Source: Candidatus Kapaibacterium sp. (lineage in GTDB: Bacteria; Bacteroidota; Ignavibacteria; Kapaibacteriales; WFXC01). From it: a DNA stretch of 38,270 nt. A program made the translations under genes and the position numbers. The notes under the pieces are model-generated. The model was not told where the DNA came from. It searched no databases and saw nothing but the letters and a program-made list of their open reading frames with translations. The DNA lies in assembly GCA_015490805.1 (NCBI GenBank), contig WFXC01000028.1:1-38270 (forward strand). Reading direction: 5' to 3'. Positions 2,541 through 30,202 of the stretch are shown piece after piece; the stretch's first letter is position 1; every line of letters begins with the position of its first letter.

Positions 2541-3977
2541 ATGCCATTTTTTCCATCCTTAGAAATCGGAAAGCGCGCACTCTTAGCGCAGCAATTAGGC
2601 TTAGATACTACGTCAAACAATGTCGCCAACGTTAATACTCCTGGCTATTCCCGGCGGCGCATTGAGTTAGTCGAAACAGAACCGGTAAAACTGGCAGCCG
2701 GCACAATCGGCACGGGCGTGCGTGCTGGTAGAATTGTGCGATTGCAGCACGAATTTTTCGACAAAGAAATTCGCAACAGCATCGCAACGAAAAAATACAA
2801 CGAAACCCACATTTTCACTTTCCAGCGACTGGAAGCGATCTTAGGAGAAGGCTCCGATACTGGACTGGATCGTTACATCCAGCGATTCTTTGACGCCCTC
2901 AACGATTTAGCCTTAGAGCCAGAAAGTCTCCAGCGTCGCGAAGCGGTGCTTTCTACCGCAACGTCAATGATCAATGCGTTTCGTACAACGGGACAGAAGA
3001 TCCGGGTTTTGCGGGAAGACATTAAAAGCAAAGCTGAAACGCGGGTTGCAACGATTAACAAATTGCTGGAACAAATTGCCTCACTCAATGCAAAGATCGG
3101 GATTGAATCCATCGAAGGAACCGGTGCCACAGCACCATTAGAAGATCAACGAACCAAACTGTTAGAACAATTGGCGGAATACTTAAATATCGATGTCCGA
3201 TACGACAACAACAATATGGTCAACATCGCCGTCAGCGGTTCGACTATCCTGACAGGTCCTAATGCCCAGACACTGGAGTTAAAAGAAACCATCGACAGCA
3301 CTACACAAGAACGTACGCTCACTTTGAACATCGTCGATACTCAAGGCAATGCAATTCTCCAATTGCATCCAGCAGGGGGAGAAATGGCGAGTTTACTGGA
3401 GCACTACAACGTTCTGTTAGACGACAAAGACAGCAGCAATGGCTTTTCGATTGCGAAACAACTCAACCGCCTGGTAGAAGCGCTGGTGACCCGAATCAAC
3501 GCTATCAGCGTCACCGGTTATGGGTTGAACGATACTGGCACCGCTCCACCGGGACGCAACTTCTTTGATCCTGCCGGAACAACACTGGAAACCATTGCGC
3601 TGGATGCTGCCATCGCTTTTTCCCCGCGGGACATTCCCACCAGTTCTGCTGCTGGGGAACCGGGCAACAGCGCAGTCGCTCTGCAAATGGCAGATGTGAT
3701 CAACGACGAAAACTTTCTGGATAACACAACGCTGATGGACTTCTACACAAACCTCATCGGCAAACTGGGATTGGCAGGGCAAAATGCCAAATTAGGATTT
3801 GACACTGCTAAAGCTGTTGAATCACAAATGATTACCCAACGAGAAGCGATGGCAGGGGTAAACCTGGATGAAGAAGCGGTCCAGTTAGTAAAATTCCAAA
3901 AAGCCTATCAAGCGGCTGCTCGCATTATTTCGGTTGCCAATGAACTGCTGGATACACTGATCAGACTTGGACAATGA
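2541..3977 (+). CDS. flgK: Flagellar hook-associated protein 1 FlgK
   Basis: This 478-residue protein has both conserved ends of FlgK. The N-terminal rod/hook domain has LGLDTTSNNVANVNTPGYSR near residue 20, and the C-terminal helix has AGVNLDEEAVQLVKFQKAYQ, AARIISVANELLDTL and an end at GQ. FlgK forms the first junction layer between hook and filament and is exported by the flagellar type III apparatus without a signal peptide. The variable middle (residues about 200-400) is of ordinary length. It follows flgN by 2 bp and precedes flgL by 19 bp, so the three form one transcription unit. Confidence 0.96.
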   Translation: MPFFPSLEIGKRALLAQQLGLDTTSNNVANVNTPGYSRRRIELVETEPVKLAAGTIGTGVRAGRIVRLQHEFFDKEIRNSIATKKYNETHIFTFQRLEAILGEGSDTGLDRYIQRFFDALNDLALEPESLQRREAVLSTATSMINAFRTTGQKIRVLREDIKSKAETRVATINKLLEQIASLNAKIGIESIEGTGATAPLEDQRTKLLEQLAEYLNIDVRYDNNNMVNIAVSGSTILTGPNAQTLELKETIDSTTQERTLTLNIVDTQGNAILQLHPAGGEMASLLEHYNVLLDDKDSSNGFSIAKQLNRLVEALVTRINAISVTGYGLNDTGTAPPGRNFFDPAGTTLETIALDAAIAFSPRDIPTSSAAGEPGNSAVALQMADVINDENFLDNTTLMDFYTNLIGKLGLAGQNAKLGFDTAKAVESQMITQREAMAGVNLDEEAVQLVKFQKAYQAAARIISVANELLDTLIRLGQ

Positions 3978-3996
3978 ACAAACATAGGGATACCCT

Positions 3997-4995
3997 ATGC
4001 GCGTAACGCAAAATAGCATCGTAGAACAGTACCAATTCAACTTGCAGCGGTTACAAGAGCAAATTACTCAGACCAACTTACGCCTCAGCAGTGGCAAAGC
4101 TTTTCTTTCCCCTTCGGAAGCGCCACTGCGAGCTGTTGATGTGAAACACGTAGAAACCCGGATCAACCAAAATCTTCGATTTAAGACCAACATCGAGAAG
4201 GCAATTACGGAGCTGGACATCTACGAATTTGCGCTGGAAAACTTTTCCACCAATCTTCGCAAAGCTCGATCGATTGTGGAAACAGCAGTTGATCCGGTCA
4301 ACTACGACAAGCCCACCGTGCTGGGTGAGCAAATTCGCCGTATACTCGATGATCTTTTAGAAATCGCCAACTACCAGCACAACGGACGTTTTCTGTTTGC
4401 TGGTACTCGCACAACGGAGGATTCTATCACCCCAACGCCACCAGAAATCACCAAACTCCCCTTTGAGCTGTTACAGGATCCCGCCGCAGTTTCTACGGAT
4501 AACCCTGAAGGCTTGCGAATTGCTTTCAAAGGAAACTTTCAGGCACGTTCTGTTCTAATCAGTGCTAATATCCAGGAACGGATCAACACCCTGGCGAACG
4601 ATGCTTTTGGTTCCAACGGTACAAAGGTGTTCGAGATTTTAGTCGAGATTTACAACGTCCTCACTTACAAACGTGATGGCACAGCCCGGGGAGAACGTGA
4701 TTTTCTGGATATCACTGATGCCCGCAAACTTCAAGCATTAGCTGACCAACTCTCGGACCAATTGGATCAACTTCATAACGAAATTGGTCGGGTAGGCGGC
4801 GTCCGCATTCGGATGGAGACGCAACTTAAACAAATCACTTACGAAAACACTCGCCTCAATGAGCTCAAATCTATTCGTGGAGATGCAGACGTCGCTCAAG
4901 AGGCGATCAATCTTACCAAATTCCAAACGTCACTGAATTACACATTGCGCGTTGGTGCCCGCTTATTTCAAACAACGCTGTTCGATTTCCTGTAA
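3997..4995 (+). CDS. flgL: Flagellar hook-associated protein 3 FlgL
   Basis: This 332-residue flagellin-like protein begins with a helix typical of FlgL (MRVTQNSIVEQYQFNLQRLQ, then TQTNLRLSSGKAFLSPSE) and ends with VAQEAINLTKFQTSLNYTLR, the flagellin C-terminal coiled coil. The segment NGRFLFAGTRTTED is also characteristic. FlgL forms the second hook-filament junction layer on top of FlgK. Gene order flgK-flgL is standard. A 7-bp hairpin follows the stop and may partly separate this gene from motA. Confidence 0.94.
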   Translation: MRVTQNSIVEQYQFNLQRLQEQITQTNLRLSSGKAFLSPSEAPLRAVDVKHVETRINQNLRFKTNIEKAITELDIYEFALENFSTNLRKARSIVETAVDPVNYDKPTVLGEQIRRILDDLLEIANYQHNGRFLFAGTRTTEDSITPTPPEITKLPFELLQDPAAVSTDNPEGLRIAFKGNFQARSVLISANIQERINTLANDAFGSNGTKVFEILVEIYNVLTYKRDGTARGERDFLDITDARKLQALADQLSDQLDQLHNEIGRVGGVRIRMETQLKQITYENTRLNELKSIRGDADVAQEAINLTKFQTSLNYTLRVGARLFQTTLFDFL

Positions 4996-5003
4996 TTAAC
5001 AAA

Positions 5004-5023
5004 CGCTCTATTTTCGTAGAGCG
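5004..5023 (+). other. Hairpin between flgL and motA
   Basis: A perfect 7-bp stem, CGCTCTA / TAGAGCG with a TTTTCG loop, lies 8 bp after the flgL stop and 20 bp before the motA start. There is no T-run, so it is not a standard intrinsic terminator. It could stabilise the upstream mRNA or lower motA expression relative to the hook genes. Confidence 0.5.
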
Positions 5024-5042
5024 GGAGTAACGGTGAAAGCGA

Positions 5043-5885
5043 ATGAGAAGCTCAGCAATCGTTGGCTTTATTTTCGGTTTTGCTATGATTTTCGGTGCCT
5101 ATTACCTGGAGGGCGGCACCGCTTCTACGCTGTTTTTGATTCCGGCACTGATGATTGTCTTCGGTGGCACTATTGCCACAGCAATGATTGGTAGTTCGTG
5201 GCAACATATAGCCCGAATGCCCAAGTTGGTCGCTATTGCTCTTTTCCCACCTGAATACGATCCCGTTGGTATTGCAAAACAAATTATCCGCTATGCAGTG
5301 GTCGCCCGGAAAGACGGCATTTTGGCACTGGAAAAATTTTTAAATCGCACACCCCATCCTTATCTAAAAAAATTGCTCCAACTGGTCATTGATGGCACAG
5401 ATCCCAAAGAGCTGCGCAAGGTTGCTGAGAACGAATTATTGTTTATCGCCCAGCGGCACCAGACCAACATTAATCTGTTTGGTCGAATGGGAGGCTACGC
5501 CCCAACAATGGGAATCATTGGAACGGTTATGGGGTTAATTTCTACCTTAGCTTCAGCAGGTGATGATCCAACCACCTTGATTAAACACATAGCGATGGCA
5601 TTTATCGCCACAATGTGGGGGATCTTATCTGCCAACCTCATCTGGCTTCCCATTGCTGATAAGCTCAAAACGCTCCACGAAGAGGAGGAACAATTGCTGA
5701 AAATGATGCAAGAAGGGATGATTGCCCTACAAGAAGGAGCACCGCCGTCAACGATTAAGTTCAAAGTTGCTTCACTCTTGCCCATTTCTGAACAGGACCA
5801 GATTATTTCAATGTCTACCTATGAAGTAATGCGGGAAAGTTCACCAATCCGGGTGACTATCTCCTCTCCACCAGAAAAGTCATAG
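5043..5885 (+). CDS. motA: Flagellar motor stator protein MotA
   Basis: This 280-residue inner-membrane protein has four hydrophobic segments. The first pair is at residues about 1-52, ending in IVFGGTIATAMIGSS. The third carries GGYAPTMGIIGTVMGLI, with the stator proline. The fourth is followed by ANLIWLPIADKLK. The cytoplasmic loop has VARKDGILALEKFL, the family segment that interacts with the rotor. MotA forms a pentamer around a MotB dimer and couples ion flow to rotation. No motB follows; the next gene is convergent guanine deaminase. I cannot tell from MotA alone whether protons or sodium drive it. A GGTG at 5032-5035 is the likely ribosome-binding site. Confidence 0.93.
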   Translation: MRSSAIVGFIFGFAMIFGAYYLEGGTASTLFLIPALMIVFGGTIATAMIGSSWQHIARMPKLVAIALFPPEYDPVGIAKQIIRYAVVARKDGILALEKFLNRTPHPYLKKLLQLVIDGTDPKELRKVAENELLFIAQRHQTNINLFGRMGGYAPTMGIIGTVMGLISTLASAGDDPTTLIKHIAMAFIATMWGILSANLIWLPIADKLKTLHEEEEQLLKMMQEGMIALQEGAPPSTIKFKVASLLPISEQDQIISMSTYEVMRESSPIRVTISSPPEKS

Positions 5886-8786: not shown

Positions 8787-10175
8787 CTATGCGTTTGGAG
8801 CGCCACTGAGCGCTTCAGAACCGCAATAGTAACGATCAAAAATCGCCAGAATTTTCTCCCATCCGGCAGGGGTTTGCCATGTATGTTCGACATCCGGCAA
8901 CTGGAGAATTTCTTCAAACATTCGATCCTGCTTCTGTTGCTCCTCCAGTGCCATACGGTAGGGTAGATCAGGCGAGAAGGTAACCATCGAGTACACAGGG
9001 AGAAAACGATGGGGAAATTCCTGCGTCAACCTGCGCTCAATCGCTTTCCGGAGGAGAAATCGAGGATCAGCGACGTGATCGCGCATCTCAACGAAATTCC
9101 GCATTGCCAGATCGGCAATAGCGTCAGCATTCGGCTTCCGCATTTGTTGATAAATGGGCAGCACGGTTGCCCAATCATCCTGATATTGCTCCAGCAGCTC
9201 AGCAAAAATCCGGCAATCTTCAAATCCGGCATTGACTCCCTGCCCATAGAATGGCACAATAGCGTGGGCAGCATCTCCAATCAGCATTACCTTTCCGCCA
9301 TAGGTCCACGGATAACATCGGATGATTGCCAAAGATGAAGTGGGGTTTCGGAAAAAATCTTCCTCTAAGGTCGGCATCAATGGGACTGCATCTGGAAATT
9401 GCTCCTCGAAAAACCGCCGTACTTCCTGCGGCGTCGACAACTCTTCAAATGACGGTGACCCTTCAAAGGGCAGAAACAGCGTACAGGTAAAACTGCCATC
9501 CTGATTGGGAAGCGCAATCAGCATAAACTGGTGGCGGGGCCAGATGTGCAACGCATTCGGTTCAATCCGCCAGCCACCTCCTTCTGCTGCGGGAATAGTC
9601 AGCTCCTTATATCCGTGCTCGATGTAATGCTGGGAGTACTGAAACCGATCCAGCCGCTGCATTCGATAGCGAACAGCAGAGAAAGCCCCATCGGCACCAA
9701 CGAGATAATCTCCGGCCACCGTCTGTCGCTCACCGGTCTGGACATTTTCCAGCACCGCCGCTGGTCGATCCAGATCGACGTCTACGCATCGCCACTGAAA
9801 AAATAGTTCTACATTGGGCAACTCTTCTGCCGCATCCAGCAGCAAGCGATTCAGTCCGCCACGGGAAACGGAGTAAATTGCCTGTCCCTCCAGCCCATAC
9901 GGCTGAAAGCGGAGCTCTCCATCGATAGGATGAATCATTCGCCCACGCATTGGAATCGCTGCCTGGCGCACTCGTTGCCCGGTCCCAGCAGCATCCAGGG
10001 CTTTCCATCCACGATCTGAAAGGGCTAAATTAATTGATCGCCCGGCTGCGATGGATGCTTTCCGCATATCGGGTCGCTTCTCATACACTTTCACCGCATA
10101 CCCACGAAGCCCCAGAACCCTGGCTAAATGAGCGCCGACCAAGCCCCCGCCGATAATGATTACTGTTGCGTTCAT
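8787..10175 (-). CDS. kmo: Kynurenine 3-monooxygenase
   Basis: This 462-residue flavoprotein hydroxylates L-kynurenine to 3-hydroxykynurenine using NADPH and oxygen. The FAD-binding GxGxxG variant is VIIIGGGLVGAHLA (GGGLVG at 9-14). GRSINLALSDRG is diagnostic of KMO among aromatic hydroxylases. LVGADGAFSAVR and IGDAAHAIVPFYGQGVNAGF are the second and third FAD motifs. FRNPTSSLAIIRCYPW is also typical of KMO. The C-terminal extension (residues about 390-462) is of the usual length. It starts 5 bp after the kynU stop with its own GGAAG site, so it is coupled to kynU and is the last pathway gene of the cluster. Confidence 0.95.
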   Translation of the reverse strand: MNATVIIIGGGLVGAHLARVLGLRGYAVKVYEKRPDMRKASIAAGRSINLALSDRGWKALDAAGTGQRVRQAAIPMRGRMIHPIDGELRFQPYGLEGQAIYSVSRGGLNRLLLDAAEELPNVELFFQWRCVDVDLDRPAAVLENVQTGERQTVAGDYLVGADGAFSAVRYRMQRLDRFQYSQHYIEHGYKELTIPAAEGGGWRIEPNALHIWPRHQFMLIALPNQDGSFTCTLFLPFEGSPSFEELSTPQEVRRFFEEQFPDAVPLMPTLEEDFFRNPTSSLAIIRCYPWTYGGKVMLIGDAAHAIVPFYGQGVNAGFEDCRIFAELLEQYQDDWATVLPIYQQMRKPNADAIADLAMRNFVEMRDHVADPRFLLRKAIERRLTQEFPHRFLPVYSMVTFSPDLPYRMALEEQQKQDRMFEEILQLPDVEHTWQTPAGWEKILAIFDRYYCGSEALSGAPNA

Positions 10176-10180
10176 CTTCC

Positions 10181-11470
10181 CTATCCTTCCTCTGTCACTT
10201 CTACCTGCTCCAGCAGTGTGCCGAAACGGAACACTTCTTCAAAAGTGTTGTACAACGGCACAGGCGCAACTCGCATCACATTCGGCTCCCGCCAGTCCAC
10301 AATGACACCAGATTGCCGCAGTTGCTGAATCACCGATTGTCCCCCACGATGGAAAAAGAGTGACAACTGACATCCTCGCTGCTGAGGATCGGATGGCGTG
10401 ATGATTTCCACTTCCAGCGCAGGATTTCGCTGGACTGCTGTTCGGATAACAAATTCTAAAAAACCGGTTAGTTGCTCGCTTTTCTGACGCAATCGTTCGA
10501 TACCCGCAGCTTCAAAAATTTCCAGCGCCGCCCGATGCACCGCCATTGAAAAGATCGGCGCATTGCTCAGTTGCCAGCTATCGACTCCCTCCATCGGAAT
10601 AAAGCCTTTTTTCATTTCAAATCGTTTCTCTTCCGGATATCCCCACCAGCCAGCAAACCGCGGCAGGTCTTTTTGCTGATGCCACCGCCGATGGACAAAT
10701 GCTCCACCAACGCTGCCCGGTCCAGAGTTCAAATACTTATACGAACACCACGCCGCAAAATCCACGTCCCAGTCGTGGAGTCGGAGTGGAACATTGCCAA
10801 CAGCGTGCGCTAAATCGAATCCCGCCACAGCACCAACTTTATGCGCTGCCCGCGTAATAGCCGGCAAATCAAAGTACTGTCCCGTATAGTACTGCACACC
10901 GGGAAACAGCACCAGGGCTAATTGCGATCCTACCTCTTCGATCTTTGCTACGATATCCTCCGTGCGAAGAATTCGCTCTCCTGCTCGAGGGAACACTTCC
11001 ACCATCCCCTCTTCAGGATCGAAGCCGTGAAACTGGAGTTGGCTCTCAATCACATAGTAATCTGAAGGAAAAGCACCAGCTTCACACAAAATCTTATACC
11101 GCTGCGGCGTTGGACGATAAAAACTGACCATCAGCAAATGGAGATTGACAGTCAGTGAATTCATCGCGACCACTTCATCCGGGTATGCTCCCACCAGATG
11201 CGCCAGCGGCTTTTTGAACCAATGATGGTAGGAAAACCACGGATGCTCTCCTCGAAAATGTCCCTCAACCCCCAGCGCCCGCCATTTTTCCAGCTCCTGC
11301 TCAAGATATGCTGCTGCATTTTTCGGCTGCAATCCCAGGGAGTTACCACAGAAATAAATCGCAGGACGTCCTTCAACTTGCGGAATAAAAAATTGCTCTC
11401 GAAATGTCCGCAGCGGATCTTGTCGATCTAACTGTTGTGCAAATTCCAGGCGATACTCCCAATCGCTCAT
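10181..11470 (-). CDS. kynU: Kynureninase
   Basis: This 429-residue PLP enzyme cleaves 3-hydroxykynurenine (and kynurenine) to 3-hydroxyanthranilate (or anthranilate) and alanine. Motifs include YFCGNSLGLQPK near residue 40, ALGVEGHF and EHPWFSYHHW, GFDLAHAVGN near 218 and the PLP lysine K245 in WCSYKYLNSGPGSVGG. These are characteristic of kynureninase rather than other fold-type I aminotransferases. The ATG overlaps the stop of the upstream decarboxylase gene by 4 bp (ATGA), implying translational coupling. Confidence 0.96.
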   Translation of the reverse strand: MSDWEYRLEFAQQLDRQDPLRTFREQFFIPQVEGRPAIYFCGNSLGLQPKNAAAYLEQELEKWRALGVEGHFRGEHPWFSYHHWFKKPLAHLVGAYPDEVVAMNSLTVNLHLLMVSFYRPTPQRYKILCEAGAFPSDYYVIESQLQFHGFDPEEGMVEVFPRAGERILRTEDIVAKIEEVGSQLALVLFPGVQYYTGQYFDLPAITRAAHKVGAVAGFDLAHAVGNVPLRLHDWDVDFAAWCSYKYLNSGPGSVGGAFVHRRWHQQKDLPRFAGWWGYPEEKRFEMKKGFIPMEGVDSWQLSNAPIFSMAVHRAALEIFEAAGIERLRQKSEQLTGFLEFVIRTAVQRNPALEVEIITPSDPQQRGCQLSLFFHRGGQSVIQQLRQSGVIVDWREPNVMRVAPVPLYNTFEEVFRFGTLLEQVEVTEEG

Positions 11471-12507
11471 TCCACCCGACTCTCCGTTTGCTCAGCTACG
11501 AACCGACTCTTCGGCAATCCAAGAAACTCTAAAGCAGCAGCCGCAAAAATTTCTTCCTTCTGCTCTGGCGATAGAAACGTTGCGTTCTCAACGATGGAAC
11601 CGTGGGTAAGATCGCCCAGCGGAAAAGGATAGTCAGATCCCATCGCAATGCGGCGGGTGCCAAACAGTTCAACGATGTATCGCAACGCTGCAACATCGTG
11701 CGTGATACTATCAACCCAGAAATGGCCCACGTACTCGCGCGGCGGGCGCACGTCGTTCACATTCACCAGATCAGGGCGGCAGTTATAGCCGTGCTGGATA
11801 CGCCCCAGGGTAATAGGAAAAGATCCACCGGCGTGCGCGAATAAAAAGCGCAGCTTCGGAAAGCGATCGAAAACGCCACCGAACATCAGGGAACAAATAG
11901 CTCTGGAAGTTTCGGCTGGCATTCCAACCAACCACGGTAGCCAGTACTTCCGCATCTGGTCCATCCCCATCATATTCCACGGATGAACAAAAATGCAGGC
12001 GCCCAGATCTTCCGCCGCTTCATAAACGGCAAAGAATCGCTCATCATCCAGATTCACTCCCTCAATATTGGAGCCAATTTCGACACCGGGCAAATGCAAC
12101 TCCTGTACACAGCGTTCTAATTCCCGAACCGCCAGCTCCGGTGCCTGCATTGGTAAGGTCCCCAGGGCAACAAATCGAGTGGGATACTGCGCCTGGACAG
12201 AAGCCAGATGGTCATTGAGAAATCGAGACCAATCCAGGGTATCCTCTGGTTTTGCCCAGTAGTTGAACAGCACCGGCACCGTGGACAACACCATCACATC
12301 CACTTTGTGTCGCTCCATATCCTGAAGAATTGCTTCTGGATTCCAGCAATTCTCCTTCACTGCCCGGAAAAACCGTCCGTCATCGTAGACCATATGGGCA
12401 ACGCCGGGTTCGACGTGCTGGATCTGGATAAAACCACCGTATCCGTAGCGGTCTTTCAAGGGGGGCCAGGTTTCTGGCAAAATGTGAGCGTGAATATCAA
12501 TCCGCAT
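11467..12507 (-). CDS. nbaD: 2-amino-3-carboxymuconate-6-semialdehyde decarboxylase (ACMSD)
   Basis: This 346-residue amidohydrolase-fold enzyme removes CO2 from 2-amino-3-carboxymuconate-6-semialdehyde, steering the pathway away from quinolinate/NAD and toward 2-aminomuconate catabolism. The zinc ligands are all present: H6 and H8 (DIHAHILPETWP), H175 (FVHPWNMMG), H225 (FAHAGGSFP) and D292 (MGSDYPFPLGD). FVHPWNMMG and GSDYPFPLGD fit ACMSD better than general amidohydrolases. An AAAGG site precedes the start, and a 171-bp gap with no gene separates it from the dioxygenase gene upstream. Confidence 0.94.
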   Translation of the reverse strand: MRIDIHAHILPETWPPLKDRYGYGGFIQIQHVEPGVAHMVYDDGRFFRAVKENCWNPEAILQDMERHKVDVMVLSTVPVLFNYWAKPEDTLDWSRFLNDHLASVQAQYPTRFVALGTLPMQAPELAVRELERCVQELHLPGVEIGSNIEGVNLDDERFFAVYEAAEDLGACIFVHPWNMMGMDQMRKYWLPWLVGMPAETSRAICSLMFGGVFDRFPKLRFLFAHAGGSFPITLGRIQHGYNCRPDLVNVNDVRPPREYVGHFWVDSITHDVAALRYIVELFGTRRIAMGSDYPFPLGDLTHGSIVENATFLSPEQKEEIFAAAALEFLGLPKSRFVAEQTESRVE

Positions 12508-20887: not shown

Positions 20888-21634
20888 TTATGAATCCACC
20901 GGTTCTTTTTCCTGCAATTCCTCCGGATATAGAATACGCCCGCAGTTTTCACAGAAAAATACTCGATAGTAGTTCCGCAGTTCCACCTCCGTCTGTGGCG
21001 GCACCACACTGTAGCATCCTGAGCAACTTCCCCGCTTTAATGGTACCGCTGCATCATCGTGATATTCGCGGATTCGCTCATAGTGCGAAAGCAACTGTCG
21101 GGGCAACTTCTTTACCAACTTTTCTCGCTGACTCTCCAGTCGCTGAATTTTATTCTGCAATCCCCCTTCCAATTCTGCATATTCCTTCTCCAGCGCTTCT
21201 AATTCCTCCTTCATTTCCGCAAGTTGTTCCTGTTCTTGCTCCAATTGCTTGTTAATGTTGTGTTCTTGAATCGCTAGCGTTGCATATCGGTTTTCTTCTT
21301 CTTCACGCTGTTGCTTAATGTACTCCAGCTCCTTTACAATCGCGTCATATTGACGATTCGTTTTGACTTGAAACAACAAATCTTCCAGCTCTTTCTGGCG
21401 ATCTCTCAATGTTTGAATCTTGAGATGGACATCGGTCTTTTCACCAACGACCTCCCGTTGCCGTTCACTGAGTTGCTCAATTTTTTTCTGCTGTTCCTCT
21501 ATGGCTTTGTGCAACTCCTCAATCTGTTCTGGCAACTCACCAAATTCTTCATAAAGCTCATCAATTTTTTGATCCAGCTTCGAAAGCTGAACGACCAATT
21601 CCAGTTGCTGCTTCACACTCAAATCGCGCGCCAT
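20888..21634 (-). CDS. Coiled-coil zinc-ribbon protein (DUF164/CdsZ-like)
   Basis: This 248-residue protein has a long charged coiled coil (about 10-185, Glu/Gln/Lys-rich heptads) and a C-terminal zinc ribbon with C204 and C207 (GSCSGCYSVVPPQ) and C228 and C231 (FFCENCGRILYPEE). This is the COG1579/DUF164 architecture, found in many bacteria, for which nucleic-acid or ribosome-related roles have been proposed. It lies between nif3 (11 bp upstream) and rnpB (7 bp downstream). The order Nif3-zinc ribbon-rnpB is, as I recall, also seen in Actinobacteria, suggesting a functional link, still undefined. Confidence 0.88.
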   Translation of the reverse strand: MARDLSVKQQLELVVQLSKLDQKIDELYEEFGELPEQIEELHKAIEEQQKKIEQLSERQREVVGEKTDVHLKIQTLRDRQKELEDLLFQVKTNRQYDAIVKELEYIKQQREEEENRYATLAIQEHNINKQLEQEQEQLAEMKEELEALEKEYAELEGGLQNKIQRLESQREKLVKKLPRQLLSHYERIREYHDDAAVPLKRGSCSGCYSVVPPQTEVELRNYYRVFFCENCGRILYPEELQEKEPVDS

Positions 21635-28691: not shown

Positions 28692-29024
28692 CTATTTTTT
28701 CTCTACAACACTGGCAACTGCATTTTTATCCACTTTCACCCGAACATTATCTGCAATTTGTAGCAGAATGGTACCATTCTCGATCTCAGAGACCGTTCCA
28801 TAAATACCACTTGCCAGCACCACCCGATCCCCTTTGCGCAAATTCTGTAGCAGCTTCTCGTGCTCCTGCTGTCGCTTCTTCTGTGGTCGGATGATGAAAA
28901 AGTAAAAAATAAGAATGATCGCACCGAACATTACAAAAGTCGAGATCAGCCCCGACATTGGATCTCCCCCACCACCCTGCTGCGGTGGCGGTGCAAAACC
29001 CAGAATCCACATCATCATTGGCAT
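28692..29024 (-). CDS. yajC: Preprotein translocase accessory subunit YajC
   Basis: This 110-residue protein has one N-terminal membrane helix ([20 protein letters not shown]) followed at once by [20 protein letters not shown] and [17 protein letters not shown], the YajC signature, and a small cytoplasmic beta domain. YajC associates with SecDF in the Sec translocon. The N-terminus (residues 1-22) has a PPPQQGGGG stretch often seen in Chlorobiota/Bacteroidota-type YajC. tgt upstream and yajC form the common tgt-yajC pair; secD and secF, which often follow, are replaced here by ribBA. Confidence 0.95.
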
Positions 29025-29059: not shown

Positions 29060-30202
29060 TTATGTTGCCACTCGTCCCGTTGCCGTCCACTGCTGAATAA
29101 ACGATTCTTTCCATTGACGGAATCCGTTTTGCCGTATTTTCTGGCGAGCTGTCTGCACCAGCCACTGATAGAATGCCAGATTCTGGAGCGTTGCTAACTG
29201 AAGTCCGAGGATTTCCTTTGCACGGAACAGATGGTGAAGATAGCCGAGGGTGAACTCCTGGGAAACGTAATATGGCAATCCCGGATCGATTGGCTCACGG
29301 CTGCCGCGGAATTTCGCATTCCGGATATTGAGCTTGCCACGCGTTGTAAACAATTGTCCATTGCGGGCATTACGGGTCGGCAGGACGCAATCGAACATAT
29401 CCACTCCACGATCGATAGCTTCCAGAATGTCAACCGGTGTACCAACCCCCATTAAATATCGGGGTTTCGCCACTGGAATCCAATCGGTCGACCAATCCAC
29501 AACCTCCAGCATTTGTTCTATTGGCTCTCCAACCGCCAGGCCACCAATAGCGTAGCCGGGGAAGTCCATTGCTATCAGCGCTTCCAGGCACCGCTGGCGC
29601 AAATCTCGATACACCCCACCCTGCCCGATAGCAAACAACCATTGCCGCCATTCGTAGAGCGGCGGCTTCGATTGCCATTGTTTCCGACACCGCTCAGCCC
29701 ATCGAATCGTCCGATCAACCACCCGCTGCATCTCCCGGTACGAAGTCGGATAGGGTGGGCATTCATCCAGCACCATCATAATGTCAGAGCCAATGCTCCG
29801 CTGAATGTCAATGACTTTCTCCGGTGTAAAAAAATGCTTCGATCCATCAATGTGGGAGCGAAATTCCACGCCGTCTTCAGAAACCGATCGGAGATCCTGC
29901 AAAGAAAAGATTTGAAATCCGCCGCTATCAGTCAGAATTGCCCCATTCCACTGCATAAAGCGATGGAGTCCGCCAAAAGTCCGAAGCACCTGCTCGCCCG
30001 GTCGGAGGTACAGATGGTAAGTATTCCCCAGAATGATCCGGTAGCCCAATTCGTGCAACTGACGCGGTTCCACCGCTTTGACAGTGCCCTGGGTACCAAC
30101 GGGCATAAAAACGGGGGTTTCAACCGCACCGTGATCCGTGGTTAAAATTCCCGTTCGGGCTTTTGTGTCCTGCGCCTGATGCTGAACCCGAAAAATCTCC
30201 AT
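29060..30202 (-). CDS. tgt: tRNA-guanine transglycosylase without its zinc ligands
   Basis: I place the start at 30202 (MEIFRVQHQAQ), which gives a normal 380 residues; the gene overlaps vanZ by 61 bp. TGT exchanges guanine 34 in the anticodon of GUN tRNAs for preQ1 in queuosine synthesis. Catalytic and binding residues are present: D92 (LTDSGGFQIFS), QGGVYRDLR, GLAVGEP, GVGTPVD and nucleophile D271 (DMFDCVLPTRNARNG). The four zinc ligands (C-x-C-x2-C and the histidine 26 residues on) align with L309, Y311, S314 and Q340, so all four are lost. The DNA supports each codon. It may have lost the zinc and stayed active, or diverged in function. Confidence 0.93.
   Translation of the reverse strand: MEIFRVQHQAQDTKARTGILTTDHGAVETPVFMPVGTQGTVKAVEPRQLHELGYRIILGNTYHLYLRPGEQVLRTFGGLHRFMQWNGAILTDSGGFQIFSLQDLRSVSEDGVEFRSHIDGSKHFFTPEKVIDIQRSIGSDIMMVLDECPPYPTSYREMQRVVDRTIRWAERCRKQWQSKPPLYEWRQWLFAIGQGGVYRDLRQRCLEALIAMDFPGYAIGGLAVGEPIEQMLEVVDWSTDWIPVAKPRYLMGVGTPVDILEAIDRGVDMFDCVLPTRNARNGQLFTTRGKLNIRNAKFRGSREPIDPGLPYYVSQEFTLGYLHHLFRAKEILGLQLATLQNLAFYQWLVQTARQKIRQNGFRQWKESFIQQWTATGRVAT

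What the first reader, a model, noticed from the sequence alone, without database searches (positions are those of the whole stretch)
29060..30202. tRNA-guanine transglycosylase that has lost all four zinc-binding residues
Bacterial TGTs carry a structural zinc held by C-x-C-x2-C and a histidine 26 residues after the third cysteine. Aligned on the flanking DP and YLHHL anchors, these positions here are L309, Y311, S314 and Q340. I retranslated the DNA at 29276-29261 and 29185-29183 and each codon is unambiguous. The catalytic aspartates (D92 and D271), the guanine-binding glutamine and the GLAVGE motif are intact, and the gene sits in the usual tgt-yajC context, so it is not an obvious pseudogene. 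Coordinated loss of the whole site suggests a zinc-independent TGT or a changed function.
Basis: partly seen in the sequence, partly recalled or inferred. Interest (0 to 1): 0.75.

Follow-up and report, generated by a model that had tools for sequence, protein, structure and literature searches.

The report
Queuosine tRNA enzyme without its zinc
The enzyme that puts the queuosine precursor into tRNA is said in textbooks to need a bound zinc, but this bacterium and almost all of the Bacteroidota relatives examined have lost the zinc-holding residues while keeping everything else, so a very common form of the enzyme probably works without the metal.

Summary
The gene at 29060-30202 (-) is a full-length bacterial TGT (TIGR00430, 502 bits) whose four zinc positions are L309, Y311, S314 and Q340. 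It is the only TGT in a 97%-complete genome. The two congeners agree at all four positions, dN/dS is 0.05-0.08, and QueC, QueD, QueF, QueG and QueA are present. It is therefore a working queuosine enzyme, not a decaying gene or an artefact.

It is not a peculiarity of this gene. All 58 readable TGTs of its order lack the cysteines, and so do 42 of 52 readable families sampled across the phylum, including Bacteroidia, Rhodothermia, Balneolia and Chlorobia. Ignavibacteria-type relatives keep CCCH. The tree needs 5-6 changes, and a single origin of the loss is rejected (p-AU 0.014), so the site was lost repeatedly. In 169 zinc-less sequences the readable catalytic, preQ1-binding, tRNA-binding and dimer residues are invariant. 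The fourth position is only ever H or Q. An AlphaFold model superposes on Z. mobilis TGT (Z 50, rmsd 1.5-1.7 A).

Best reading: an ordinary preQ1-inserting TGT with a metal-free C-terminal subdomain. Changed function is not supported. No paper in the searched library reports the loss. Activity and metal content are untested.

The parts
29060..30202 (-). tgt, tRNA guanosine(34) transglycosylase, 380 aa, zinc ligands absent
   Evidence: TIGR00430 502.6 bits, PF01702 520.5 bits; only TGT in the genome
29276..29278 (-). L309, position of zinc ligand Cys 1
   Evidence: alignment to E. coli and Z. mobilis TGT
29270..29272 (-). Y311, position of zinc ligand Cys 2
29261..29263 (-). S314, position of zinc ligand Cys 3
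29183..29185 (-). Q340, position of zinc ligand His; H or Q in all 169 zinc-less sequences
29927..29929 (-). D92, catalytic general acid/base (Z. mobilis D102)
   Evidence: D in every readable sequence: 164 of 164 zinc-less, 50 of 50 with zinc site
29390..29392 (-). D271, catalytic nucleophile (Z. mobilis D280)
   Evidence: 169 of 169 zinc-less, 50 of 50 with zinc site
29168..29296 (-). C-terminal 'zinc' subdomain, residues about 303-345, including dimer-interface positions F317, Y321, H324, E330
   Evidence: AlphaFold2 pLDDT 95-98 in residues 301-350; Y321 168/169, H324 and E330 169/169
28692..29024 (-). yajC, next gene downstream
   Evidence: PF02699 101.5 bits
30142..30642 (-). VanZ-like gene upstream, overlapping the start of tgt by 61 bases
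   Evidence: PF04892 47.8 bits

Best explanation
This is the genome's ordinary, working tRNA-guanine transglycosylase. By inference from conserved residues it attacks G34 of GUN-anticodon tRNAs with D271 and inserts preQ1, which QueA and QueG then turn into queuosine. What differs is structural. The small C-terminal subdomain, which in E. coli and Z. mobilis is pinned by a Cys3-His zinc and forms part of the homodimer interface, is held together without metal. The likely replacement is a hydrophobic plug at the first ligand position (L/I/V/F), a small polar residue at the third (S, or D in many Bacteroidia) and an H or Q on the helix at the fourth, making hydrogen-bond and packing contacts where the ion used to be. 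Shown: the sequence change, its spread and recurrence, purifying selection, conservation of all other functional residues, and a confident model of the same fold. Inferred: metal-free enzyme activity. Inferred more weakly: the hydrogen-bond and hydrophobic clamp.
For: TGT equivalog far above cut-off. Single TGT in the genome, with QueA, QueC, QueF, QueD and QueG. dN/dS 0.02/0.23 and 0.015/0.32 against the two congeners, with one non-synonymous codon change per comparison in residues 295-350. All 58 readable TGTs of the order lack the cysteines. Forty-two of 52 readable phylum families lack them, 9 keep CCCH, 1 is mixed. In 169 zinc-less against 50 zinc-site sequences, D92, D146, C148, Q194, G221, D271, R277, R280, H324 and N341 are invariant where readable, and E226, E330 and Y321 nearly so. 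Position 340 is H 109, Q 60 and nothing else. AlphaFold2 pLDDT 95-98 in the subdomain; Z 49-50, rmsd 1.5-1.8 A over 362-373 residues to Z. mobilis TGT. QueC of the same genome keeps CX7CX2CX2C, so the loss is specific to TGT.
Against: No activity or metal measurement exists here. Work on E. coli TGT (Chong et al. 1995, cited in PMC9508795) is taken to show that zinc is required for activity. AlphaFold gives confident folds for metal sites whether or not a metal is present, so the model does not prove metal-free stability. The pairings of D with H and of a hydrophobic first position with Q are strong in raw counts (Fisher p about 6e-12 and 2e-11) but are not significant once relatedness is allowed for, so the clamp model is weakly supported.
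Confidence: 0.86

Rival explanations
1. The protein has changed function or substrate and no longer makes queuosine tRNA, for example a different RNA, a different base, or a non-catalytic partner like QTRT2.
For: All four residues of a site said to be required for activity are gone.
Against: Both catalytic Asp, the preQ1 pocket (D146, C148, Q194, G221, V224, E226) and tRNA arginines R277/R280 are kept in every readable zinc-less sequence; QTRT2, by contrast, lost its catalytic Asp (PMC6165067). It is the only TGT in a genome with QueC/D/F/A/G.
Confidence: 0.05
2. Zinc or another metal is still bound through other residues of the same subdomain.
For: H324 is kept everywhere and H340 in many relatives, and the acidic D at position 3 in Bacteroidia could in principle be a ligand.
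Against: The window protein has no Cys after C272, and 115 of 169 zinc-less sequences have none in the subdomain. Position 2 is highly variable and position 1 mostly hydrophobic or Gly. The window itself has L/Y/S/Q, which cannot form a normal zinc site.
Confidence: 0.05
3. Sequencing or assembly error, or a decaying pseudogene.
For: None found.
Against: Same residues in three congeneric genomes; dN/dS 0.05-0.08; open frame with confident fold.
Confidence: 0.01
4. Loss was a single event at the base of Bacteroidota, with the CCCH forms in Ignavibacteria-type families regained by horizontal transfer from outside.
For: The quick 107-row tree's starred branches force only one change.
Against: In the 26-row careful tree the best topology needs 6 changes, bootstraps 5-7, and one clade of zinc-less TGTs is rejected at p-AU 0.014. 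L172 (FSNH) lies among CCCH members of its own family f15 in both trees.
Confidence: 0.15

Closest known systems
Bacterial TGT (TIGR00430; E. coli and Z. mobilis Tgt, PDB 1pud, 1q2r)
   Same: Whole length, fold, catalytic Asp pair, preQ1 pocket, tRNA arginines, dimer-interface residues; 46-48% identity to Z. mobilis TGT.
   Different: Cys3-His zinc site absent (L, Y, S, Q).
Zinc-site TGTs of Ignavibacteriales/Melioribacteraceae, probably the window's own class (L040, L042, L160)
   Same: Orthologous gene, similar sequence (54-56% identity for L040 and L042).
   Different: Retain CCCH.
Bacterial GluRS with and without zinc in the putative zinc-binding domain (PMC4381286)
   Same: A tRNA enzyme whose zinc-binding subdomain keeps its fold and function after the ligands are lost in many lineages, using alternative side-chain contacts.
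   Different: Different enzyme; there the zinc-free state was tested biochemically.
Zinc and non-zinc forms of ribosomal protein S4 (PMC3087516)
   Same: Recurrent presence or absence of a structural zinc in a conserved translation protein.
   Different: Different protein; only the title and the start of the abstract were read.
QTRT2, accessory subunit of eukaryotic TGT (PMC6165067)
   Same: TGT fold with altered conserved residues.
   Different: The opposite pattern: QTRT2 keeps zinc and lost catalytic residues; this protein keeps catalysis and lost zinc.

Membership tests
Bacterial tRNA-guanine(34) transglycosylase (Tgt) | Match over TIGR00430 equivalog cut-off along the whole protein | tested here: met
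   502.6 bits against 306.75, residues 8-372
Bacterial tRNA-guanine(34) transglycosylase (Tgt) | Catalytic Asp pair (Z. mobilis D102, D280) | tested here: met
   D92 and D271
Bacterial tRNA-guanine(34) transglycosylase (Tgt) | preQ1/guanine pocket and tRNA residues (D156, C158, Q203, G230, V233, E235, R286, R289) | tested here: met
   D146, C148, Q194, G221, V224, E226, R277, R280
Bacterial tRNA-guanine(34) transglycosylase (Tgt) | TGT fold including C-terminal subdomain | tested here: met
   AlphaFold2 pTM 0.90; Z 49-50, rmsd 1.5-1.8 A over 362-373 residues
Bacterial tRNA-guanine(34) transglycosylase (Tgt) | Structural zinc, C-x-C-x2-C and His | tested here: not met
   L309, Y311, S314, Q340. 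As 169 orthologues in the phylum also lack it, this is a variable rather than a defining feature, but the literature treats it as a hallmark (PMC6165067)
Bacterial tRNA-guanine(34) transglycosylase (Tgt) | Base exchange of G34 in GUN tRNAs | not testable with these tools
   needs an assay; indirect support from the QueC/D/F/A/G set
Bacterial tRNA-guanine(34) transglycosylase (Tgt) | Homodimer | not testable with these tools
   interface positions kept: F317, Y321, H324, E330
Archaeosine TGT (TgtA) | TIGR00432 equivalog cut-off | tested here: not met
   132.2 bits against 350

The most novel reading that the evidence does not exclude
The structural zinc regarded as necessary for TGT is dispensable in nature. 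It was lost independently at least twice, probably 4-6 times, within Bacteroidota and related classes and replaced by a metal-free core, so that most TGTs of this phylum, including those of gut Bacteroidales, are zinc-free enzymes. This is not stated in any paper found here.
Probability: 0.7. Interest if true: 0.55.

Novelty: new variant of a known kind. Interest (0 to 1): 0.45.

Why it matters
TGT is listed among the zinc-requiring enzymes of the queuosine pathway, an argument used to link queuosine to metal homeostasis (PMC9508795). If most Bacteroidota TGTs are metal-free, that link does not hold for a major group that includes abundant gut bacteria, a likely source of queuine for the host. 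The many natural zinc-free/zinc-bound pairs, including both states inside one family (f15), make it directly testable what the metal does for folding, dimerisation and tRNA binding. It also warns annotators not to treat the missing cysteines as a sign of a defective gene.

Tried and rejected
Pseudogene or sequencing error: rejected by three congeneric genomes and dN/dS. A second, normal tgt: none in the genome. Relocated cysteines: none in the C-terminal subdomain (sequence). General loss of zinc sites in this organism: rejected, since QueC keeps its four cysteines and the window encodes a protein with a C4 zinc ribbon at 20888-21634. A unique loss in this genus: rejected. A single loss in the phylum: rejected by the AU test on a 26-row tree; the same test on the larger 107-row tree did not finish. 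Covariation of the four positions as proof of a clamp: strong raw association that disappears under independent pairs on the tree. Papers: no paper in the library joins TGT, zinc and Bacteroidetes, and related searches found no report of the loss; subscription papers are mostly not covered.

Full report
Observation. The minus-strand frame at 29060-30202 encodes 380 residues and matches the TGT equivalog TIGR00430 with 502.6 bits and PF01702 with 520.5 bits over the whole length. Against E. coli and Z. mobilis TGT the zinc ligands Cys-Cys-Cys-His align without gaps to L309, Y311, S314 and Q340. The only cysteines are C148, C172, C205 and C272, so no other cysteine is available in the C-terminal subdomain.

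Not an error or a relic. Both other genomes of the genus carry L/Y/S/Q at the same four positions. dN and dS against them are 0.020/0.232 and 0.015/0.322. In residues 295-350 there are 12 and 14 synonymous codon differences and one non-synonymous each. The genome, 97% complete, has no other TGT.

Pathway context. The genome has QueC, QueD (two PTPS matches, one beside QueF), QueF, QueG and QueA. QueH was not found, as expected when QueG is present. A complete route from preQ0 to queuosine with a single TGT implies that this TGT performs the insertion step (inference). QueC of the same genome keeps its cysteine-rich zinc site (CYQSEDHACGVCESC), and a C4 zinc-ribbon protein is encoded in the window (20888-21634). 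The organism has not abandoned structural zinc in general.

Distribution. The state was read in 219 TGTs: 169 without the cysteine triad and 50 with it. In the window's order, all 58 readable TGTs, from ten families, lack it. In a sample of one to four genomes from each of the other 44 families of the phylum, 9 families have CCCH, 32 lack it, one (f15) has both states (three CCCH, one FSNH), one has no TGT (f44) and one is split by a frame break (f46). With the window's ten families that is 42 of 52 readable families without the site. A DNA pattern for C-x-C-x2-C at the right distance from the Y-x-x-H motif hits most of the same-class families and one other family, and none of the 25 genomes of the window's order in that sample. 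Hits elsewhere in the phylum are of the kind and number that the reversed control pattern also gives. Named representatives show what the groups are: CCCH in Melioribacter/Ignavibacteriales, Calditrichota, Armatimonadota and Bacillota; GSDH/GTDH/GCDH/SLDH/LGSH in Bacteroidia; LHAQ in a Rhodothermaceae record; FSCH in Balneolales; FNCQ in Chlorobiaceae. The 80 named loci were the best matches to the window protein, so they are not an even sample; the family-by-family sample is the one to count. The window's order is probably the Kapaibacteria group: the named Kapaibacterium record L037 has the same site (VASQ) and nearly the same flanks as family f2 of the order.

Number of losses. With the four ligand columns removed, a 107-row maximum-likelihood tree needs five changes, though starred branches alone force only one. 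A careful 26-row tree needs six (5-7 over bootstraps), and holding all zinc-less rows together is rejected (log-likelihood 40.5 lower, p-AU 0.014). Outgroups have CCCH, so loss is the simpler direction. Partial sites (FSCH, FNCH, CTSH, CASQ) show that erosion need not take all four at once. The H-to-Q step at position 340 is separate and repeated (13 changes at least). So the window's 'all four lost' is the end state of two processes rather than one coordinated event.

What is kept. In the zinc-less set, every readable sequence has D at 92, D at 146, C at 148, Q at 194, G at 221, V at 224, E at 226, D at 271, R at 277, R at 280, H at 324, L at 325, E at 330 and N at 341; Y321 is kept in 168 of 169. 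By Z. mobilis numbering these include the nucleophile D280, general acid/base D102, the base-recognition residues, the tRNA arginines and the dimer-interface positions Y330 and H333 (position roles from established knowledge of the Z. mobilis enzyme; the PDB titles include mutants at Y330, H333, W326 and E339). W326 is F317 here, another aromatic. In the former ligand positions, position 2 is free to vary, position 1 is mostly hydrophobic or Gly, position 3 is mostly S, D or C, and position 4 is only H or Q. Positions 3 and 4 therefore remain constrained without zinc.

Structure. AlphaFold2 on an alignment of 38 sequences from the window and the search for related loci gives mean pLDDT 89.6 and pTM 0.90, with block means of 95-98 across residues 301-350. 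It superposes on Z. mobilis TGT over residues 1-374 with rmsd 1.5-1.7 A and Z about 50 (Foldseek TM-scores about 0.9). The fold of the subdomain is thus predicted to be unchanged. The method does not model metals, so this shows compatibility, not metal-free stability.

Mechanism proposed. A normal ping-pong base exchange at G34 with D271 as nucleophile, in a homodimer whose C-terminal subdomain is locked by side-chain packing and hydrogen bonds instead of zinc. The precedent is bacterial GluRS, where zinc-free versions of the zinc-binding domain keep the fold and function through other contacts (PMC4381286). The raw pairing of D at position 3 with H at position 4 (53 of 54) and of a hydrophobic position 1 with Q (58 of 60) fits such a lock, but the tree-corrected test has too few independent contrasts to support it.

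Known or new. Reviews and papers call zinc a hallmark or requirement of TGT (PMC6165067; PMC9508795; PMC4425180). No paper in the searched library combines TGT, zinc and Bacteroidetes, and further searches found no report of the loss. The library lacks most subscription papers, so novelty is provisional. The TGT chains found in the PDB search look like Z. mobilis, E. coli, eukaryotic and archaeal enzymes and a few others; none was recognised as from Bacteroidota (organism names are not in that output, so this rests on the entry codes and alignments).

Verdict. Observation confirmed; zinc independence likely; changed function unlikely. The interesting unit is not this gene but the phylum-scale, recurrent loss of a supposedly required structural metal in a core tRNA-modification enzyme.

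Noticed in passing
G000:C17:23582-24604 (L238) and G000:C16:39002-40183 (L237): Nearly all genomes of the order carry two QueA paralogues. The second is about 430 aa with inserted segments yet still passes the NCBIfam QueA equivalog cut-off. Why two are kept is unknown.
   Followed up: partly
L218 (G176:C1:156835-157896): A Chlorobiaceae-like genome (family f41) has a second, very divergent TGT-like protein (66.6 bits) besides its normal-length tgt.
   Followed up: no
L240 and L241 (G231, family f17): One genome of the same class appears to have two different TGTs, both with an intact CCCH zinc site.
   Followed up: no
L217 (G226:C1:2356013-2357085) and G196: In G226 tgt is split between two overlapping reading frames (possible frameshift), and no TGT was found in G196.
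   Followed up: no
window 8787-12507 (-): Adjacent genes for an FAD-binding monooxygenase, a kynureninase and an amidohydrolase suggest a kynurenine (tryptophan degradation or NAD) cluster.
   Followed up: no
window 2541-5885 (+): Flagellar genes (flgK, a flagellin/FlgL-like gene, motA) suggest a motile organism.
   Followed up: no
window 30142-30202: The VanZ-like gene overlaps the start of tgt by 61 bases on the same strand, which suggests coupled translation.
   Followed up: no
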